DNA of 64,000 bases from a virus: positions 22,436 through 86,435 of the IMG/VR virus record IMGVR_UViG_3300044994_000386; one strand, 5' to 3'. The number at the start of each line of letters is the position of its first letter. Positions within the stretch are counted from its first letter, which is position 1. Made by a program: the position numbers and the translations under genes. Positions 44,943 to 63,727 of the stretch are shown one piece after another. A model generated the notes under the pieces. That model was not told where the DNA came from and ran no database searches. It worked only from the letters and a program-made list of their open reading frames with translations.

Positions 44943-45596
44943 ATGAAATTTATAAAAAAATACGAAAATTTTAATTCAGAGCCTTTACACATATTCGATT
45001 TTGATAATACTTTAGTAGACACGCCATCTTTCGAGGAATTAGTATATAAAATGATTAAAGAAGACGTTAATGTTAAAACTTTACTGAATAGGTCTATCAA
45101 AATTTTAGGCGTTTCTATTAATGATCTGAAATGGGAAAACGGTCGAATTTATGTAAGTGATCCTGAAAATAAACTAACACCAACTAAAAATTGGATCAGA
45201 AAAGGAAAACGTTTATACCTTACACCACCAGATAAATTCTATTATTTGGATGAATCTTTACCAACTGGACTTTTAAATTTATCTGAAAAATACAAAGAAG
45301 TTAAAAATAAAGCAATTTTGACCGGTAGAACAATTGACATGAAAGATAAGATTTTAGAAACTTTGAAAAGATTAGGATTGGAAGAACCAAATTTTGGTCT
45401 TTTTTGTTATCCAAACCGTTCACAAACTTCTGATAAAGTTGCTGTCTGGAAAGGCAAAACTATTATTAAATTGATACAAGAAACAGGTTTTAAAGAAGTT
45501 TATTTCTATGAAGATAAGATTAAGTGGTTAAAAACAACCACCAAAATGGTTAAAGAAAAGTTACCGGAAGTCAAATTCAAACCAATAAAAGTTTAG
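44943..45596 (+). CDS. HAD-family hydrolase with the shared N-terminal motif
   Basis: 217 residues. The start MKFIKKYENFNSEP is the shared motif, followed directly by HAD motif I HIFDFDNTLVDTP with Asp19 and Asp21. Motif II is AILTGR and the acidic motif IV is VYFYEDKIKWL. The pattern is related to the SAK-type HAD at 8448-9002. A comparison of the two shows that the motif here is an added leader of about 14 residues on an otherwise similar catalytic domain. The probable activity is phosphatase; substrate unknown. The end overlaps the convergent polymerase gene by four bases. Confidence 0.82.
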   Translation: MKFIKKYENFNSEPLHIFDFDNTLVDTPSFEELVYKMIKEDVNVKTLLNRSIKILGVSINDLKWENGRIYVSDPENKLTPTKNWIRKGKRLYLTPPDKFYYLDESLPTGLLNLSEKYKEVKNKAILTGRTIDMKDKILETLKRLGLEEPNFGLFCYPNRSQTSDKVAVWKGKTIIKLIQETGFKEVYFYEDKIKWLKTTTKMVKEKLPEVKFKPIKV

Positions 45597-47089
45597 TTTA
45601 ATTCGGCCTCAAGTTGTTTGATTTCATCCAATACCTTCTTGAGTTCATCTTTTTTCTTCATCATGATCTTCTTATTCTTCTTTCTATCAGCATAAACTTC
45701 TTCAAGCATTTTAAGTGTAGGTGAGTTTCGTTTTTCAAACACCACACCATTTACACAAACCACATGCTTTTGAGGATCAATTTTAACACCATTATCGCAG
45801 TAATCTGGTCGATTAGGATCTTTAACACCAACAAAAGTTTCTGGTGCAATAAAAAATTGTCTTTGAGTTGTTGGATATAATGAGGCAAAGTCATAACAAA
45901 CTACCCACTGATTCAAGCCTTGTATTGGATCTTTAACCCAACCACCAACAATTCCTGCGTTATCATTATTATTTTTATCACCTCTAAAAAGTACGATTTT
46001 TTCTTGTTCCCTGAATCTATTTCTAAGCATCCCTTCAGTAATCGCAAGTGAACCAAGAGCATTGTTTACTGATGAAATAACATCCACAATTTTTATCCTG
46101 GCAAGCGAAGATATCGCATAAATTATTGATATGTAGTTACGAGATTCATGTATCTTTTGAACTAGAACAGAGTCAACTGCGTTATAATACATAAACGTTT
46201 CAAAATCATCTTCGTATAACTTTTGCAATGAACCGTTGTACTTAATTTTCTCAACACCAACCAATTTACTCGATACGAAGTCTAATGATGAAGACTCTTT
46301 AACTTTAATTGAAGTATCACAGATTTCATAAAGTTGCATGTAATCAAAAATCATTCTATGTGCTGGTATTTCTTGATTTGACATCCAAACTTTATTTAAT
46401 CGCTTAGTCAAAGAAGAAACTGCCGGATCAATAGTATATTCTTTACCGTTTACTGTCTTTTTTAATTTACGAGCACGATTTACCAAGTAAACCCAGTCAT
46501 AATTTACGAAGTTCCAACCCGTTATTAGTGGCATTTTTGGAATCATCTTATAAAAGAAATTATACATCATGTCAAATTCATCATCATATTTGATGTACTT
46601 AAATTTATATTCGGTGCCAAACTTTTCGAAATATTTATTAGTATTATCTTTGATACGCTTTTGCATATCTTCTGGCATATCTTTTAAACCCAAAAGAATG
46701 ATCTTATCATCGTAAACAATTGAAATAGAAAGTACGCGAGTTGGCGCGGTTTCAGCATCGGGAAATCCATCTATTATTTCGGTCTCAATATCAACAAAGT
46801 ATATCTTAGGTAAATTAAATTCAAATATTTCTTCTTTTTCTTTTTCTGGAAGAGCGTCTAAAAAATCATAAACTGAGTATCTATCTGGTTGTGAAACTGG
46901 AATCTTTTTTACTGGCTTACCATCACATGATCGATAATTTAAATCACGATCTTTATCATCTGGTTCACAAACAACATATTTGGTTGGATTATCCCAATCG
47001 TAGTATTTTAATTTAATATCTCCAGTCTTATTTACATAACTGATTATTAAACGCTTTGTGTTACTTAAATATTGACAATCCACTAACAT
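45593..47089 (-). CDS. 43A: Family B DNA polymerase, N-terminal half (split gp43)
   Basis: 498 residues. The exonuclease domain has Exo I YFVDIETE (Asp100, Glu102), Exo II TGWNFVNYDW near 195 and Exo III YYNAVDSVLV near 305. The polymerase part starts with GGWVKDP and motif A VCYDFASLYPTT near 405. The chain then ends with a lysine-rich helix (DRKKNKKIMMKKKDEL) before motif B (KxxxNSxYG) and motif C (DTDS), neither of which I find elsewhere in the window. T4-type relatives are known with the gene split at a similar place, between motifs A and B. The remaining half must be encoded elsewhere or be supplied in trans. The downstream neighbour is a convergent HAD gene. Confidence 0.9.
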   Translation of the reverse strand: MLVDCQYLSNTKRLIISYVNKTGDIKLKYYDWDNPTKYVVCEPDDKDRDLNYRSCDGKPVKKIPVSQPDRYSVYDFLDALPEKEKEEIFEFNLPKIYFVDIETEIIDGFPDAETAPTRVLSISIVYDDKIILLGLKDMPEDMQKRIKDNTNKYFEKFGTEYKFKYIKYDDEFDMMYNFFYKMIPKMPLITGWNFVNYDWVYLVNRARKLKKTVNGKEYTIDPAVSSLTKRLNKVWMSNQEIPAHRMIFDYMQLYEICDTSIKVKESSSLDFVSSKLVGVEKIKYNGSLQKLYEDDFETFMYYNAVDSVLVQKIHESRNYISIIYAISSLARIKIVDVISSVNNALGSLAITEGMLRNRFREQEKIVLFRGDKNNNDNAGIVGGWVKDPIQGLNQWVVCYDFASLYPTTQRQFFIAPETFVGVKDPNRPDYCDNGVKIDPQKHVVCVNGVVFEKRNSPTLKMLEEVYADRKKNKKIMMKKKDELKKVLDEIKQLEAELN

Positions 47090-52313: not shown

Positions 52314-53891
52314 ATGATAACCAAATACAGTGAATTTTTATTGGAACAATTTATAACAATGATTAATGAATCAGAGGTGATATTTTCAGATAAGTTTAGA
52401 AAATTACTTAAAGCAATCGAATCACCAATTGCCAAGGCACTTATAAATATTGAGAATAAAGATTTAAAAATAACTGCTAACTATTTAGATGTTTCAGATA
52501 ATAAAGATTCAATTTCTTTCATACCAGATAGAAAAGCTCAAGAGATATTAAAAGATAAACCAGAAAAGTTTGCAACATTTAATGGTACCGGTGGTATTTT
52601 AACACATAACATGAAAGAAAACGGGACCATATTCAATTTATTAGGATATGAACCAAAAGGCGACAAAGGTTATAAACCACAAGTCGGTGAAAGGGGATTA
52701 GTTGTTTCAAGAGCCGTTTCGCCTTTATCAGGAAATGTTTATCTTTATATGAAGTTTGATAATGGTGAATGTGTATTAAAGGAAGATAGAGTAAACTATG
52801 AAGATTATCTAAAAGATCTTTGGACTAAAAATAGACAAAATGTGAGAACAGGTAGAGCAATTCAAGCATTATTGAATGCTGCTGGTTATACATATAAATC
52901 ATCTGAAATTGAAGAATTTGTTAATAAATATAAATCGGCTTTTGAAAAAATGAACGATGCTTTCTCAAATTTTGAATTAGTTGAAGGTGATAAAATTGGT
53001 TACTGGTATAATTCTAAAAATTACGCTGATAATAAAGGTACACTTTCAAATTCTTGTATGTCAAATGTTCCAAATAACTTCTTTGATATTTATATGTCAA
53101 ATCCTGATGTATGTAAACTATTGATTTTAAAAGACGAGTCTGGTAATAAAATTAAAGGCAGGGCTTTAGTTTGGAAACTTCAATTTCCAGAAGGAGTTAC
53201 TTTTCTTGATCGTATATATACACATAATGATTCAGATGTTGAGTTATTCCGTGAGTATGCTAAATCTCAAGGGTGGTATTATAAATTTAGAAATGATAGT
53301 TCAAATTCTTCTGAAATGATTTCACCATCAGGTGAAAAAGTAGATATGGGACCATTAGTAGTGAAAATTAGAAAAGGTGAATATAATAAATATCCATATG
53401 TGGATACGGTCAAATATTTTAATTCAAGTGCAGGCACACTATCAACTAGTTCTAAAGGATATGTAATCTGTCTTGAAGATACCAATGGAGGTGGAGAAGA
53501 GTGTGACTATTGCGGAGGTTCAGGTGAAGTAGAATGTTATGACTGTGAAGGTAGTGGTGTACAAAGATGTGAAGAGTGTGATGGAACAGGTAACATTAAT
53601 TGTGAAGAATGTTACGGTAATAGAGAATTAGATTGTCCAAATTGTGATGGTTTAGGTGAAATTGATTGTGAATATTGTGATGGTTTAGGTGAAAACGATG
53701 ATGGTGAAGAATGTTCAGTTTGTGAAGGTAAAGGTAAAGTTGACTGCAGTTATTGTGACGCTGAAGGTAAAAGAGAGTGTCCGGAATGTGACGGTAGAGG
53801 TACCGTTGATTGTAATGAATGTGACGGTAGAGGTGAATACTCTTGTAGTAACTGTGATGGTGAAGGTATCGTGCCTTGTCCGGAATGTTAA
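52314..53891 (+). CDS. FIPD/SCM/GRALW family protein fused to a DnaJ-type zinc-finger array
   Basis: 525 residues, starting MITKYSEFLLEQF (variant of the shared motif) one base after the previous stop. Family blocks: ESPIAKALI, DSISFIPDRK, GRAIQALLNAAGYTYKSS, EIEEFVNKYKSAFE, GTLSNSCMSNVPNNFFDIY and KGRALVWKLQFPE..FLDRIYT. From about residue 395 to the end there are about eleven C-x-x-C-x-G-x-G or C-x-x-C units, the repeat used in DnaJ cysteine-rich domains, where four units fold around two zinc ions. A much longer array than in DnaJ. It may bind unfolded proteins or RNA. Short frames in other phases here are shadows of the repeat. Confidence 0.85.
   Translation: MITKYSEFLLEQFITMINESEVIFSDKFRKLLKAIESPIAKALINIENKDLKITANYLDVSDNKDSISFIPDRKAQEILKDKPEKFATFNGTGGILTHNMKENGTIFNLLGYEPKGDKGYKPQVGERGLVVSRAVSPLSGNVYLYMKFDNGECVLKEDRVNYEDYLKDLWTKNRQNVRTGRAIQALLNAAGYTYKSSEIEEFVNKYKSAFEKMNDAFSNFELVEGDKIGYWYNSKNYADNKGTLSNSCMSNVPNNFFDIYMSNPDVCKLLILKDESGNKIKGRALVWKLQFPEGVTFLDRIYTHNDSDVELFREYAKSQGWYYKFRNDSSNSSEMISPSGEKVDMGPLVVKIRKGEYNKYPYVDTVKYFNSSAGTLSTSSKGYVICLEDTNGGGEECDYCGGSGEVECYDCEGSGVQRCEECDGTGNINCEECYGNRELDCPNCDGLGEIDCEYCDGLGENDDGEECSVCEGKGKVDCSYCDAEGKRECPECDGRGTVDCNECDGRGEYSCSNCDGEGIVPCPEC
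53500..53888 (+). repeat. Cysteine-rich CxxCxGxG coding repeat array
   Basis: About eleven tandem units of roughly 30-36 bases, each coding for a Cys-x-x-Cys pair plus Gly-Gly or Asp-Gly spacer. The units differ at the DNA level, so they are not a recent expansion. Confidence 0.85.
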
Positions 53892-58807: not shown

Positions 58808-59197
58808 TTATTTTTTAGTCACGATTATTTGATTTGAATTTTTATATTCTACCTCAACTTGACCTGGATTCATTCCCGGCCTTTTGTGTACAAATTTTCT
58901 TTTACAATAAACAACGGTTACTTTAGATCCAGAATTACCTTTTGAATTATCAGCAGCAATTTGAGCCGCTTTTTTAATTACTTCCAGTGTTGGTAATTTA
59001 TCAGATACCTTTATTACCACATGGCTACCAGGTACACCTTTAGCGTGCATCCAAATATCGTCTTCACTGGCTAATTCCAATGTCAAGAAATCATTTGCTG
59101 CTGCATTTTTACCTTGAAAAACAATAAAATCATCAATTAGGTGTCTTTTGACACCATTGCCTTTTGCTTCAAAATATTTATACTTTAATATTTCCAT
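58808..59197 (-). CDS. Stand-alone NFACT-R (DUF814) domain protein, RqcH-like
   Basis: 129 residues. The start MEILKYKYFEAKGNG is a variant of the shared motif. The rest is a complete NFACT-R domain: EDDIWMHAKGVPGSHVVIK (RqcH has DTWLHVKDIPGSHVVIR), then AAQIAADNSKGNSGSKVTV, and HKRPGMNPGQVEV near the end. In RqcH/NEMF this domain binds tRNA and the 50S subunit in ribosome quality control, where alanine tails mark stalled chains. The catalytic NFACT-N part is missing here. It may bind ribosomes or tRNA and compete with or assist rescue. Overlaps the 59197 gene by one base (TAATG), so coupled. Confidence 0.9.
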   Translation of the reverse strand: MEILKYKYFEAKGNGVKRHLIDDFIVFQGKNAAANDFLTLELASEDDIWMHAKGVPGSHVVIKVSDKLPTLEVIKKAAQIAADNSKGNSGSKVTVVYCKRKFVHKRPGMNPGQVEVEYKNSNQIIVTKK

Positions 59198-59614: not shown

Positions 59615-60970
59615 ATGTCTAAACTCGTGAGATTAAATGAAATAAACGATGATTCATTATTGAACGAACTATTCTCTCAAGAAATAGTTGTATTTGAAGA
59701 TGTACAGGGCTCAAAAATTTTTGTAAATTGGAATGGAAAAGAATTTATAATTAAGCCAAAATCACTATCCTCTGAACCAATCAACTTAATTGATTTGGCT
59801 ATGCAGAATTATTACAATCATGCAATAAATTATTTTAATTCATTAGATTCTCGTGTCAAAGGTTTATTAAATAAGAAATGGTGGTTTTGCTTTGAATATT
59901 TTCCAGATAATCAACCGGCTAATATTCAATATGATCGTGTTCCGAAAAATCACTTAGTACTCACATCAATTTCAAAAAATGGTAGGTTCGAATACTCATT
60001 TGATGAATTAGATGAATACGCTAGGCTTTTCAATACTGATGTGATTCCGGTAATTTTTAAAGGTAAATTGAGTGAGAAGTCAATTGAAGCAATTAAGTAC
60101 TTTTTAAACACAAGTGAAGATGATTTAGAATTTGTTTTTGGTGAAAAATCTTTTTCATTTTTCTTTTATAAGTTGTTAAATCCACAGTTAAATAACTCAT
60201 TCTTGATGCAAGATGATTTTCAAAAAAATATTGAAAAAATTATTATCCGTGTATCTAACAAAGATATATCATTTGAAATTTTAAATCCATTATATAAGAG
60301 AATATCAAACTCTAATTCAACTGATTTTGTTGAAATCTATAGTTTAATTTTAGTTAATTTCTTGAATTTTTGCCAATCTATTAAATTAGATGAAATTAAA
60401 ATTAAAGCTAATCGAAGGGACGAGGCTTATATTAACTTAATTTGTAAGTTATTTAACATATATCTATCTGAAGTAAAAGAAGATCTTCTACAGTTTGACT
60501 TTGCAGTACCTGAGTTTTTTGATAAAGATAAATTCAGAATCAATAAAGAGCTAATCCAAAATAAAAAAACCAAAAGTTTAATTGAAGAATCACCTAAGAT
60601 CGAGTACATATTTAAAGTTATCTTAGGATCTTTCAATAAAAAAAGAAAGAAAACGATCGGTGTATTCACAGAAGACACACTTGTTATATTCAATACATTT
60701 GTTGATCGTATCAATTCATACTTAGATAAACACCTAAAGAAATTGAGTGAAATTGAACTAACTAGAAAAAAACTTTTAGATTTCGGTGACTTTTTCGAAA
60801 TTAAATATGATACAGATGGTGATGAACAAGTTTATCCAGATATCTACACTGAGTTTGAAAAAGGATTTCCGGAAGAAAAGAATAAGAAGAAAAGTAAAGG
60901 TGGAAAATTTGAAGTAGAGCCTCCCTCAGAAGAAAAAACAACTATACCAGATGAAACAGGTAAAGGTTAA
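59615..60970 (+). CDS. Possible RNA/DNA ligase-like nucleotidyltransferase domain protein
   Basis: 451 residues. The N-terminal 160 residues show ligase-like features: IFVNWNGKEFIIKPKSL (a Lys-Pro near the place of the KxDG site), then KWWFCFEYFPDNQPANIQYDRVPKNHLVL, which resembles motif III-IV (GE..., YDR.P..). The usual KxDG motif is not intact, so activity is doubtful. The C-terminal half is helical, with a Lys/Glu-rich disordered end (EEKNKKKSKGGKFE). It may be an RNA ligase relative used in tRNA repair. Low certainty. Divergent from the NFACT-R operon with a 61-base spacer. Confidence 0.55.
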   Translation: MSKLVRLNEINDDSLLNELFSQEIVVFEDVQGSKIFVNWNGKEFIIKPKSLSSEPINLIDLAMQNYYNHAINYFNSLDSRVKGLLNKKWWFCFEYFPDNQPANIQYDRVPKNHLVLTSISKNGRFEYSFDELDEYARLFNTDVIPVIFKGKLSEKSIEAIKYFLNTSEDDLEFVFGEKSFSFFFYKLLNPQLNNSFLMQDDFQKNIEKIIIRVSNKDISFEILNPLYKRISNSNSTDFVEIYSLILVNFLNFCQSIKLDEIKIKANRRDEAYINLICKLFNIYLSEVKEDLLQFDFAVPEFFDKDKFRINKELIQNKKTKSLIEESPKIEYIFKVILGSFNKKRKKTIGVFTEDTLVIFNTFVDRINSYLDKHLKKLSEIELTRKKLLDFGDFFEIKYDTDGDEQVYPDIYTEFEKGFPEEKNKKKSKGGKFEVEPPSEEKTTIPDETGKG

Positions 60971-61086: not shown

Positions 61087-62304
61087 ATGATTAAAGTATT
61101 AGAGTACAGACCCGAAAAAAAATTTCAGATTCGAAATAAACTCCAAAACAAAAATCATTTATTACAATTTTTACCACTTAGTTTATTTGAAATTTCAAAA
61201 GTTAGATTTATTACGTTCAAAAAACAAAACTTAAAAACTGCCTATTTAATAGACATAGTTCACAATTTACTCCTAAAATATTATTTCAAAAAAGAAAATA
61301 GATTTAATTTATCATCCATTATATTAAAAGAAAAATATGGCTATCTTTATAATTATTATATTGAGTGGTTATTACAGAATGAAACTATTGTAATGGTTCA
61401 AAATTATAAAACTGGTAAAAGGGCCAGAGTTTATAAATTAAATGAATCTATAATCAATGGAAAAATCAGTCGATATAGAAACACAGATAAGATTTTATTG
61501 AAAAAATGGAAAAATGCGGTTTTATCAATTGAAACTGAAGATACCACAACCAACCAAATACTACCAGAAATTAAACAAAAACTGGTTGATGATTTGTTCC
61601 ACGTTCAAATTGATTACCAGAAATCTATTTTATTTTTAGATTCTACAATGCAGGAATTCGATATTTACAACAAAAATAAATATTCAATAGATGCAATTAA
61701 AGACCAACATATATTCTATCATTTTGATTCATATGGTAGGATGCATACCAATTTTACAATTCTTAAATCATTTATCCGTAAAAATTGTTTACTAATTGAC
61801 GGAGAAGAAACCTATGAACTAGATATAAAAAATAGCCAACCTTTATTTTTAACAAAGTTAATGTTGGAAGAGGGCTTAGTAGACATAGATTTATCTGAGT
61901 TTGAGCTATTCAAATATCTAACAACGCATGGAAAGTTTTATCAATATATCATGGATAATTCAGATATAAAAGAAAAATCTAAAATTAAAGAGTTAACCTA
62001 TAAAGTTCTTTTTGGTAAAAACCATCGAAGTAAAGACGAAATGATTTTTAAGAGATTATTTCCCACGATTCATAATTTTATTAAGATGTACAAAAAAAAG
62101 AGTAAAGATTATAAAACTTTATCTCATCAGCTACAAAGAGCCGAATCTAATCTTGTTTTTAACAAAATTATTAAAGAAATTATGTATCTCTATCCTGAAG
62201 TTAAATTAATTACGGTTCATGATAGTATTATTTTCCAACAAAAGTACAAATCAATCATAGAAGAAGTATTCAATAATCAACTAAAAAAAGAATTTGATAT
62301 ATGA
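61087..62304 (+). CDS. Family A DNA polymerase-like palm protein
   Basis: 405 residues. Motif A is ETYELDIKNSQPLFLTKL (about 243-260), with the catalytic Asp; a preceding HFDSYGRMHTNFTILKSF block resembles the region before motif A. Motif B is KELTYKVLFGKN (about 305-316), with the fingers Lys and the Tyr-x-x-x-Gly part. Motif C is ITVHDSIIF near 378-386, the HD of family A. There is no 3'-5' exonuclease domain and the chain is shorter than Pol I. I know similar proteins from Bacteroidota mobile elements as hypothetical. It may be a repair or specialised polymerase. The stop overlaps the next gene by four bases (ATGA). Confidence 0.68.
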   Translation: MIKVLEYRPEKKFQIRNKLQNKNHLLQFLPLSLFEISKVRFITFKKQNLKTAYLIDIVHNLLLKYYFKKENRFNLSSIILKEKYGYLYNYYIEWLLQNETIVMVQNYKTGKRARVYKLNESIINGKISRYRNTDKILLKKWKNAVLSIETEDTTTNQILPEIKQKLVDDLFHVQIDYQKSILFLDSTMQEFDIYNKNKYSIDAIKDQHIFYHFDSYGRMHTNFTILKSFIRKNCLLIDGEETYELDIKNSQPLFLTKLMLEEGLVDIDLSEFELFKYLTTHGKFYQYIMDNSDIKEKSKIKELTYKVLFGKNHRSKDEMIFKRLFPTIHNFIKMYKKKSKDYKTLSHQLQRAESNLVFNKIIKEIMYLYPEVKLITVHDSIIFQQKYKSIIEEVFNNQLKKEFDI

Positions 62305-62497: not shown

Positions 62498-63076
62498 ATG
62501 TTTAATTTATCAGATCCAAAAATAGGATATTTAATTATATCTGCACAAAATGAGAATACCTCTGCCTTGGATATTAAATTTCAATCCAATAAGTTGGCTA
62601 ATATTCTTTATGCTAAAGATTATACTCTAATTCCTGTTACTGGTTATTATAATCAAAAATATGAAAATTCATATATTGCTATCACTTCTGATGATAATGA
62701 TAATGATAAGCTAAGATCAGATGCAATCTATCTAATGGATGAGTTTAACCAATCATCTGTAATAGTTAAATATATCAACGAAACAGGTGCTAAGAAAATT
62801 CTTTCTGATGGATCCGAAGTACCATTGGGGATTGTAATTTATAATTCTGATATGAAAAATAAGACATATATCTACAATGGTGTTTCATTTTCGTTTATTG
62901 AGCAAAAGAGATATTATTTCCCTAAAGATAAAAAAGATCTTAAATCTGGAATGATCGTAGAATACTTTAATAATAATAAATGGACGGAACGACAAATAGT
63001 AAACGTCGATGATGAATACGATAAGATGTATCGATTATTAATAAAATATAAGAAGTTAAGAATTTGTCAATCATAA
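62498..63076 (+). CDS. Hypothetical protein, DUF3293-like start
   Basis: 192 residues. The N-terminal stretch KIGYLIISAQNENTSALDIK with PVTGYYNQKYENSYIAI recalls the DUF3293 pattern (SAQNPxS...N...L...PVxGxY...EES) seen in bacterial and phage proteins. The C-terminal 65 residues (SFIEQKRYYFPKDKKDL) look like a separate small domain. Possible nucleotide- or ligand-related role; unproven. It is preceded by TTTTATATATAGTTT next to the start. Confidence 0.6.
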   Translation: MFNLSDPKIGYLIISAQNENTSALDIKFQSNKLANILYAKDYTLIPVTGYYNQKYENSYIAITSDDNDNDKLRSDAIYLMDEFNQSSVIVKYINETGAKKILSDGSEVPLGIVIYNSDMKNKTYIYNGVSFSFIEQKRYYFPKDKKDLKSGMIVEYFNNNKWTERQIVNVDDEYDKMYRLLIKYKKLRICQS

Positions 63077-63112: not shown

Positions 63113-63727
63113 ATGATAAAAATTAAAAACTTTGCAAAGCAAGAATTGGATATTCTTGCTGCAACAACACCGGATGCTATTATTATACCATTTGCAAAAG
63201 AAATACTTGAATTGTGTGAATCATTTGGTAAATCAGGTCAAAGTGGTGCTTCGGCGCCTTACGTTGCCTATGCTATTTCTGAGACAGTAAGGAAACTAAT
63301 GCTATTTGAGCCTATTTCAGATATTACAGGTGATGAAAATGAATGGCACGGTATATCTGAAACAGATAATGGCTCAATAATTTTTCAAAACATTAGATGT
63401 GGTGCTTTATTTAAAGATGGAGTGGATTCAAAACCATACTATCTACATGCTATTGTTTGGAAAGGCGTTGAAGATGAGGATACGTTTACTGGAAGCGTTT
63501 ATTATGATGATATAAATTTTGAATTGATAAGTAGCAAACAATTAGTTAAATTTCCTTTTAAACCAAAGACATTTTATATTGATGTGGTTCGTGTGCCAAT
63601 TACAAAAGAAGAAGCCGAAATTAGAAATTTATACTACACCGAAAGTATTTCTGGAGAATGTTATTATACTATTTTAAAAGATCCAAAACAACTTGATGAA
63701 GTTTTTAAATATTATGAAAAAATCTAG
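63113..63727 (+). CDS. Conserved phage protein of unknown function
   Basis: 204 residues. The start MIKIKNFAKQELD is weakly motif-like. The blocks GKSGQSGASAPYVAYAISE, LMLFEPISDITGDENEW, IIFQNIRCGALFKDG and FPFKPKTFYIDVVRV match a family I recall from many phages and some bacteria (pattern GGSAPY ... PLTG-DEW ... QN-RC ... TFYIDV). No function is known. Followed by a promoter element and the LRR gene. Confidence 0.7.
   Translation: MIKIKNFAKQELDILAATTPDAIIIPFAKEILELCESFGKSGQSGASAPYVAYAISETVRKLMLFEPISDITGDENEWHGISETDNGSIIFQNIRCGALFKDGVDSKPYYLHAIVWKGVEDEDTFTGSVYYDDINFELISSKQLVKFPFKPKTFYIDVVRVPITKEEAEIRNLYYTESISGECYYTILKDPKQLDEVFKYYEKI

What the first reader, a model, noticed from the sequence alone, without database searches (positions are those of the whole stretch)
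61087..62304. Second polymerase: short family A-like palm protein without exonuclease
Motif A (ELDIKNSQP), motif B (KELTYKVLFG) and motif C (VHDS) are in the right order and spacing in 405 residues, with an unusual N-terminal half. The phage therefore carries a family B half and a family A-like protein. The role (repair, priming, RNA-templated synthesis) is open, and the family seems little studied.
Basis: partly seen in the sequence, partly recalled or inferred. Interest (0 to 1): 0.62.

Follow-up and report, generated by a model that had tools for sequence, protein, structure and literature searches.

The report
Exonuclease-free Pol I-like polymerase of megaphages
A giant bacterial virus carries, besides its main copying enzyme, a small second polymerase built like the core of DNA polymerase I; close versions sit in the largest known phages and distant ones in bacterial mobile elements, it resembles published but barely studied 'TV-Pol' and 'divPolA2' proteins, and whether it starts new strands, patches gaps or makes RNA is untested.

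Summary
ORF 61087-62304 (+) encodes 405 aa with motifs A (D246), B (K301...FG) and C (HD379S) in family A order, plus an unlisted DxxGR motif (214-218). Across 84 aligned relatives D246, R218 and K301 never vary, and D379 is kept wherever present. AlphaFold2 on that alignment is confident (pLDDT 93.9); the best solved matches are family A DNA polymerases, then mitochondrial RNA polymerases. Profiles link it strongly to phage divPolA2 (E 4e-12), weakly but in register to Pol I (P 3e-4; shuffles far lower), and hardly to T7 RNA polymerase. There is no exonuclease domain; residues 51-118 look like a winged helix. No Pfam, PHROG or NCBIfam family recognises this protein. Relatives occur in 634-735 kb phages (Mahaphages), which also carry family B polymerase in pieces, in over 150 viral contigs, and sporadically in integrase-bearing bacterial elements. 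Its signature is an invariant glutamine where Pol I has its ribose-sensing glutamate. Most likely an active accessory (primase-like or gap-filling) DNA polymerase: a new variant of the TV-Pol/divPolA2 kind. Substrate and role are inferred, not shown.

The parts
61087..62304 (+). Short family A-like polymerase gene, 405 aa (P0001)
   Evidence: Open frame; conserved in 84 aligned relatives; predicted model pLDDT 93.9
61237..61440 (+). Winged-helix-like N-terminal domain, residues 51-118
   Evidence: Helix 51-68, strand 73-76, helices 77-84 and 88-97, strands 101-105 and 113-118 in the model; reading as winged helix is inference
61726..61740 (+). DxxGR motif, residues 214-218 (R218 invariant), equivalent of TxxGR of Pol I and DX2GR of T7-like RNA polymerases
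   Evidence: R218 84/84, D214 77/84, G217 80/84; DX2GR as a family feature in PMC4496689
61816..61842 (+). Motif A ELDIKNSQP, residues 244-252; D246 = first catalytic aspartate; Q251 at the steric-gate position
   Evidence: D246 84/84, Q251 84/84; glutamate at that offset in all 19 family A yardsticks
61975..62016 (+). Motif B (O helix), residues 297-310: [RK]xxxKxxx[YF]xxxFG
   Evidence: K301 84/84, R or K at 297 in 80/84; aligned to the R..K..F..YG of E. coli Pol I by hhalign
62215..62226 (+). Motif C VHDS, residues 377-380; D379 = second catalytic aspartate
   Evidence: D379 in 83 of 83 rows that reach it; aligned to VHDE of Pol I
59615..60970 (+). Conserved upstream gene, 451 aa, unknown function
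   Evidence: Homologue upstream on the same strand in 48 of 72 loci, mostly within 300 bp; about 67% identical
62498..63076 (+). Conserved downstream gene, 192 aa, S-AdoMet lyase family-like
   Evidence: Homologue downstream in 50 of 72 loci; PF23780 E 6e-9 in one relative, above cut-off
45593..47089 (-). Part of a family B DNA polymerase (the 'family B half')
   Evidence: PF00136 at 45611-46027, E 4e-13, profile 19-155 of 453

Best explanation
The protein is a catalytically competent, exonuclease-free, minimal family A-type polymerase: a winged-helix-like N-terminal domain followed by a helical linker and a palm/fingers core. The palm binds two metals through D246 and D379; K301 and the arginine or lysine at 297 hold the incoming triphosphate; R218 touches template or primer. 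Inferred role: it is not the replicase (a split family B enzyme is present) but an accessory polymerase of the phage and of mobile elements. The N-terminal domain docks it on DNA, and the core makes short stretches, most likely DNA primers or initiation patches, that the family B enzyme extends. Levels: palm of family A type 0.95; active polymerase 0.85; accessory DNA polymerase of the element's own DNA metabolism 0.65; primer synthesis rather than gap filling 0.4.
For: Model pLDDT 93.9 from an 84-sequence alignment. Foldseek top PDB matches are family A polymerases (apPol, Pol theta, Pol I), probability about 1.0. hhalign: to divPolA2 E 4e-12; divPolA2 to Pol I E 2e-9; direct to Pol I P 3e-4, score 39.0 against shuffles of at most 16.6. 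Invariant catalytic residues. Megaphages W01-W04 carry family B polymerase in pieces and a 5'-3' exonuclease. No DNAG_N primase hit in any of six records although controls rang. In LR756511 the gene overlaps by 4 nt a gene with a DNA_pol_A hit. Bacterial copies lie near integrases, a resolvase, an AAA_24 gene and ArdC. Precedent: TV-Pols predicted to be primase-polymerases (PMC2579912), CcPol-MP shown to prime with dNTPs (PMC7581432).
Against: No biochemical data. Direct similarity to Pol I is weak (probability 38%) and no Pfam model fires. TM-scores to solved structures are only 0.3-0.4. Toprim_2 hits, strong in W05 and marginal in W01-W03, may be conventional primases. In most phages the gene does not sit in a recognised replication cluster; the neighbours are an unknown gene and a SAM-lyase-like gene. 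No SSB-like partner comparable to MP was identified. Sugar specificity is unclear because the gate residue is changed.
Confidence: 0.55

Rival explanations
1. It is a repair or gap-filling polymerase, the phage's own equivalent of the Klenow part of Pol I, working with the phage 5'-3' exonuclease and a ligase to finish lagging strands or repair damage.
For: Stand-alone 5'-3' exonuclease in four megaphages; in one Flavobacteriaceae element a 5'-3' exonuclease gene lies 75 bp downstream on the same strand; Pol I-type core; the divPolA2 authors name repair as one possible role (PMC11348598).
Against: In the phages the exonuclease gene is far from this gene; mobile elements rarely need their own gap-filler; the winged-helix-like domain is not a Pol I feature.
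Confidence: 0.3
2. It is a single-subunit RNA polymerase or an RNA primase of the T7 kind.
For: DxxGR rather than TxxGR upstream; the family A steric-gate glutamate is replaced by glutamine; POLRMT structures rank just after DNA polymerases in Foldseek; the divPolA2 authors name this possibility for their family (PMC11348598).
Against: hhalign to T7-like RNA polymerases scores 24.9 against 39.0 to Pol I, with shuffles up to 19.3; the position equivalent to T7 RNAP Y639 is F309 in all 69 phage rows, whereas from general knowledge Y639F weakens rNTP selection; no promoter-recognition domain of the T7 kind.
Confidence: 0.12
3. It is a catalytically dead palm protein used as a DNA-binding or regulatory factor.
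For: Divergence from every curated family; tight conservation can also be structural.
Against: Both metal-binding aspartates, the triphosphate lysine and the template arginine are the invariant positions, which is the pattern of catalysis.
Confidence: 0.05

Closest known systems
divPolA2 (barbaviruses, Vibrio phages including ICP1; Virol J 2024, PMC11348598)
   Same: About 400-435 aa, family A palm with catalytic aspartates, no 3'-5' exonuclease, unclassified N-terminal domain, second polymerase beside family B; profile match E 4e-12
   Different: divPolA2 phages were not found by tblastn with this protein; divPolA2 has a DPY-type fingers motif and E/H/W at the gate position, here [FYL]Y and invariant Q; separate clades in a tree of the core
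TV-Pol family (PMC2579912)
   Same: 400-600 aa minimal family A core in mobile elements of Bacteroidetes, Planctomycetes, Verrucomicrobia; conserved hairpin arginine, two aspartates, RxxxK; linked to integrase or resolvase
   Different: Fingers aspartate absent here; no D5 helicase fused or recognised beside it; N-terminal domain is alpha/beta (winged-helix-like), not all-helical; the presumed Ma-LMM01 member MAP_030 shows no significant profile match
CcPol-MP primase of SCCmec (PMC7581432; survey PMC10061031)
   Same: Small mobile-element family A polymerase that works as primase-polymerase: a functional precedent
   Different: Needs an OB-fold partner (MP), not found here; lacks the N-terminal domain; sequence relation not tested here
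DNA polymerase I / Klenow core (PF00476)
   Same: Order and spacing of TxxGR-like, A, B, C motifs; fold
   Different: No exonuclease, glutamine for E710, serine for E883 in most rows, no Pfam hit
T7-like RNA polymerases (PF00940)
   Same: DxxGR, palm fold
   Different: Low profile score, half the size, no promoter-binding domains

Membership tests
Family A DNA polymerase | Palm aspartates in motifs A and C | tested here: met
   D246 84/84, D379 83/83
Family A DNA polymerase | Motif B R-x3-K...YG on the O helix | tested here: met
   R or K at 297, K301 invariant, F309 in place of Y, G310 in most; aligned by hhalign
Family A DNA polymerase | Steric-gate glutamate (E710 of E. coli Pol I) | tested here: not met
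   Q251 in 84/84; E in all 19 yardsticks
Family A DNA polymerase | Match to the PF00476 model | tested here: not met
   No DNA_pol_A hit for the protein, among its relatives' listed families, or in the whole record
Family A DNA polymerase | Overall fold of the polymerase core | tested here: met
   Top PDB matches all family A, probability about 1.0, but TM-score 0.3-0.4
divPolA2 | Significant profile similarity over the palm | tested here: met
   E 3.7e-12, score 96.5 versus 17.6 shuffled
divPolA2 | Occurs with a regular family B polymerase in the same phage | tested here: met
   Family B pieces in the window record and W01-W04
divPolA2 | Fingers DPY-type motif | tested here: not met
divPolA2 | Same clade | tested here: not met
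   Separated by a 100/100 branch; root unknown
TV-Pol | Invariant arginine of the hairpin and two palm aspartates | tested here: met
   features from PMC2579912
TV-Pol | Fingers with conserved aspartate and RxxxK | tested here: not met
   [RK]xxxK present, aspartate absent
TV-Pol | Mobile-element context with integrase or resolvase | tested here: met
   For several of the bacterial relatives only
TV-Pol | Direct sequence grouping with named members | tested here: inconclusive
   Only a presumed Ma-LMM01 member could be compared, no significant match; other named members not at hand
T7-like RNA polymerase | Profile similarity to T7-like RNA polymerases | tested here: inconclusive
   Score 24.9, shuffles up to 19.3; PF00940 record search had no ringing control
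PolA-SSB primase (CcPol-MP) | OB-fold SSB partner gene | not tested
   Neighbours show no recognised OB fold by Pfam; no structure was made for them
PolA-SSB primase (CcPol-MP) | Primer-independent DNA synthesis | not testable with these tools
   Needs purified protein

The most novel reading that the evidence does not exclude
This is the primase of the largest known phages: a family A primase with a glutamine ribose gate and a winged-helix docking domain, supplying primers to a two-piece family B replicase, a structural solution apart from DnaG-type and AEP primases, shared with mobile elements of their hosts.
Probability: 0.22. Interest if true: 0.7.

Novelty: new variant of a known kind. 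Interest (0 to 1): 0.45.

Why it matters
Family A enzymes that can start strands are known from one worked-out example (CcPol-MP). A conserved, exonuclease-free family A core in the largest phages, and in mobile elements of their presumed host phylum, gives a natural series to test how a polymerase becomes a primase or RNA polymerase: the ribose gate is changed to glutamine in every member. It also adds a missing polymerase to the replication inventory of Mahaphages, where neither Pfam nor PHROGs sees it.

Tried and rejected
Pfam, PHROGs and NCBIfam scans of the protein and of 84 relatives gave only scattered weak hits; the best was an unannotated PHROG (phrog_4756, 6 members, best E 6e-8). 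phmmer/hmmsearch of the PDB gave nothing significant; a Pol I entry (9qhs) appeared at E 1.6 in the right register. Folding without an alignment failed (pLDDT 36). Reverse transcriptase: not among Foldseek matches with meaningful scores. Plasmid replication initiator: considered because of the Hymenobacter plasmid copy, set aside because that plasmid has its own annotated replication initiation protein. Ma-LMM01 MAP_030 as a TV-Pol yardstick gave no significant match. T7-like RNA polymerase was compared and scored lower than Pol I. divPolA1 was not compared: one record is not held and only a cut end of another was fetched. The upstream 451-aa gene could not be identified.

Full report
Setting. 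The window is the last 64 kb of an 86,435-bp virus record. The ORF at 61087-62304 (+) is 405 codons from an ATG.

Relatives. tblastn finds it in six phage records of 595-735 kb. The lengths 634, 636, 642 and 735 kb are those of the four largest complete genomes of the Mahaphage clade, predicted to infect Bacteroidetes (PMC7162821); that LR745206, LR756504, LR756502 and LR756501/3 are those genomes is inferred from the lengths. An alignment-based scan of IMG/VR found 158 related stretches, and GTDB genomes gave 16 in Bacteroidota, Planctomycetota and Verrucomicrobiota. In 396 sampled genomes of the phylum of a Pontibacter copy, 14 had a match, one being the centre itself, and in 294 of the phylum of a planctomycete copy, 2: patchy, as mobile genes are. 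A tree of the core separates the megaphage-type sequences from a mixed mobile-element group that includes LR756511; support is rough and some branches are long.

Is it a family A palm? Three lines agree. (1) Conservation: in 84 rows R218, D246, I247, S250, Q251, Y285 and K301 never vary; D379 is kept wherever the row reaches it. (2) Profiles: direct comparison to 19 family A polymerases scores 39.0, P 3e-4, aligning K301 with the motif B lysine and HD378-379 with the motif C HD of E. coli Pol I; 40 column shuffles reach at most 16.6 and the reversal 14.4. The link is much stronger through divPolA2: 3.7e-12 to it (shuffles at most 17.6), and 2.4e-9 from it to Pol I. T7-like RNA polymerases score 24.9, shuffles up to 19.3. 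(3) Structure: with the 84-sequence alignment the model has mean pLDDT 93.9, pTM 0.89, and Foldseek ranks Plasmodium apicoplast polymerase, Pol theta, Pol I and POLRMT at the top. TM-scores are low (0.3-0.4) and rmsd high, so the match is of the core, not of the whole chain. In predicted viral structures the best match is a protein already named 'putative DNA polymerase I' of an uncultured marine phage (47% identity, TM 0.93), and Barba and Aeromonas phage proteins follow. The motif A correspondence (D246 with the first catalytic aspartate of Pol I) rests on order, on the divPolA2 alignment and on the model, since local hhalign to Pol I covers only motifs B and C confidently.

Anatomy. Residues 51-118 have the helix-strand-helix-helix-hairpin order of a winged helix (inference). 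Residues 119-205 are helical and could serve as thumb. D214-x-x-G-R218 is the DX2GR/TX2GR element of the superfamily (described for RNA polymerases in PMC4496689). At the position of the Pol I steric gate E710 (five residues after the first aspartate) every one of the 84 rows has glutamine, while all 19 family A yardsticks have glutamate and divPolA2 has E, H or W. F309 stands at the place of the Pol I motif B tyrosine in all phage rows. These changes make sugar selection hard to predict. There is no exonuclease domain.

Context. Upstream, a 451-aa gene of unknown function is found in 48 of 72 related loci, and downstream a 192-aa gene related to S-adenosylmethionine lyases in 50 of 72, on the same strand and mostly close by. 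The record and megaphages W01-W04 hold family B polymerase matches in separate pieces and no PF00476 match, so this protein is a second polymerase. W01-W04 also have a 5'-3' exonuclease gene. DNAG_N primase was not found in any of the six records, with ringing controls; Toprim_2 hits are clear in W05 and marginal in W01-W03, so a conventional primase is not excluded. In LR756511 the gene overlaps by four bases the next gene, which has a DNA_pol_A hit. Bacterial copies lie near tyrosine integrases, a resolvase, AAA_24, DUF3871, ArdC, methylases and in one case a 5'-3' exonuclease.

Mechanism. Shown by sequence and prediction: an intact family A-type active site without proofreading. Inferred: active DNA polymerase; accessory rather than replicative, because family B is present; docking through the winged helix; priming or initiation slightly favoured over gap filling, because mobile-element family A cores (TV-Pol) were predicted to be primase-polymerases from their context (PMC2579912) and CcPol-MP was shown to start strands with dNTPs (PMC7581432).

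Known or new. The nearest described group is divPolA2 (PMC11348598), which shares size, lack of exonuclease, unclassified N-terminal domain and company of family B. It differs in motif details and forms another clade. The wider class is TV-Pol; membership cannot be settled because named members could not be compared properly and the fingers aspartate is missing. A 2026 survey of bacterial polymerases (PMC12926913) describes PolA1, PolA2 and PolA3, none of which fits this protein. No paper found describes this protein in Mahaphages, but the search covered open-access papers only. I rate it a new variant of a known kind.

Noticed in passing
window 45593-47089 (-); LR756502 about 120552-121919 and 254948-255340: Family B DNA polymerase of these megaphages is split: one gene matches the profile's start (18-155), another, about 134 kb away in LR756502, the rest (124-452).
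   Followed up: partly
L011 4993-6279 (LR756511): A 428-aa DNA_pol_A protein whose start overlaps by 4 nt the stop of the palm homologue; only its C-terminal half matches Pfam.
   Followed up: partly
window 59615-60970: Highly conserved 451-aa protein with an EDVQGSK...FEYFPDNQPANIEY pattern that recalls RNA-ligase-type nucleotidyltransferases without the lysine; recalled from memory, no family or PDB match.
   Followed up: partly
window 62498-63076: Relative of S-adenosylmethionine lyases (PF23780), possibly anti-restriction, kept next to the polymerase gene in many phages.
   Followed up: partly
window 63113-63727: Tad3-like Thoeris inhibitor, PF25185 E 4e-21.
   Followed up: no
window 52314-53891: 525-aa protein whose C-terminal part is an array of CxxC-rich repeats like the DnaJ/BSD2 zinc domain.
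   Followed up: no
window 58808-59197 (-): Stand-alone NFACT-R RNA-binding domain (ribosome quality-control type), PF05670 E 6e-14.
   Followed up: no
L273 (Vibrio phage ICP1 57667-58971): This hypothetical protein of ICP1 is a divPolA2 (41.7% identical to AUR84708).
   Followed up: no
L092 (DCST01000012, MAG UBA1459): 7.5-kb contig filed under a bacterial genome groups with the phage-type sequences and is probably a phage contig.
   Followed up: no
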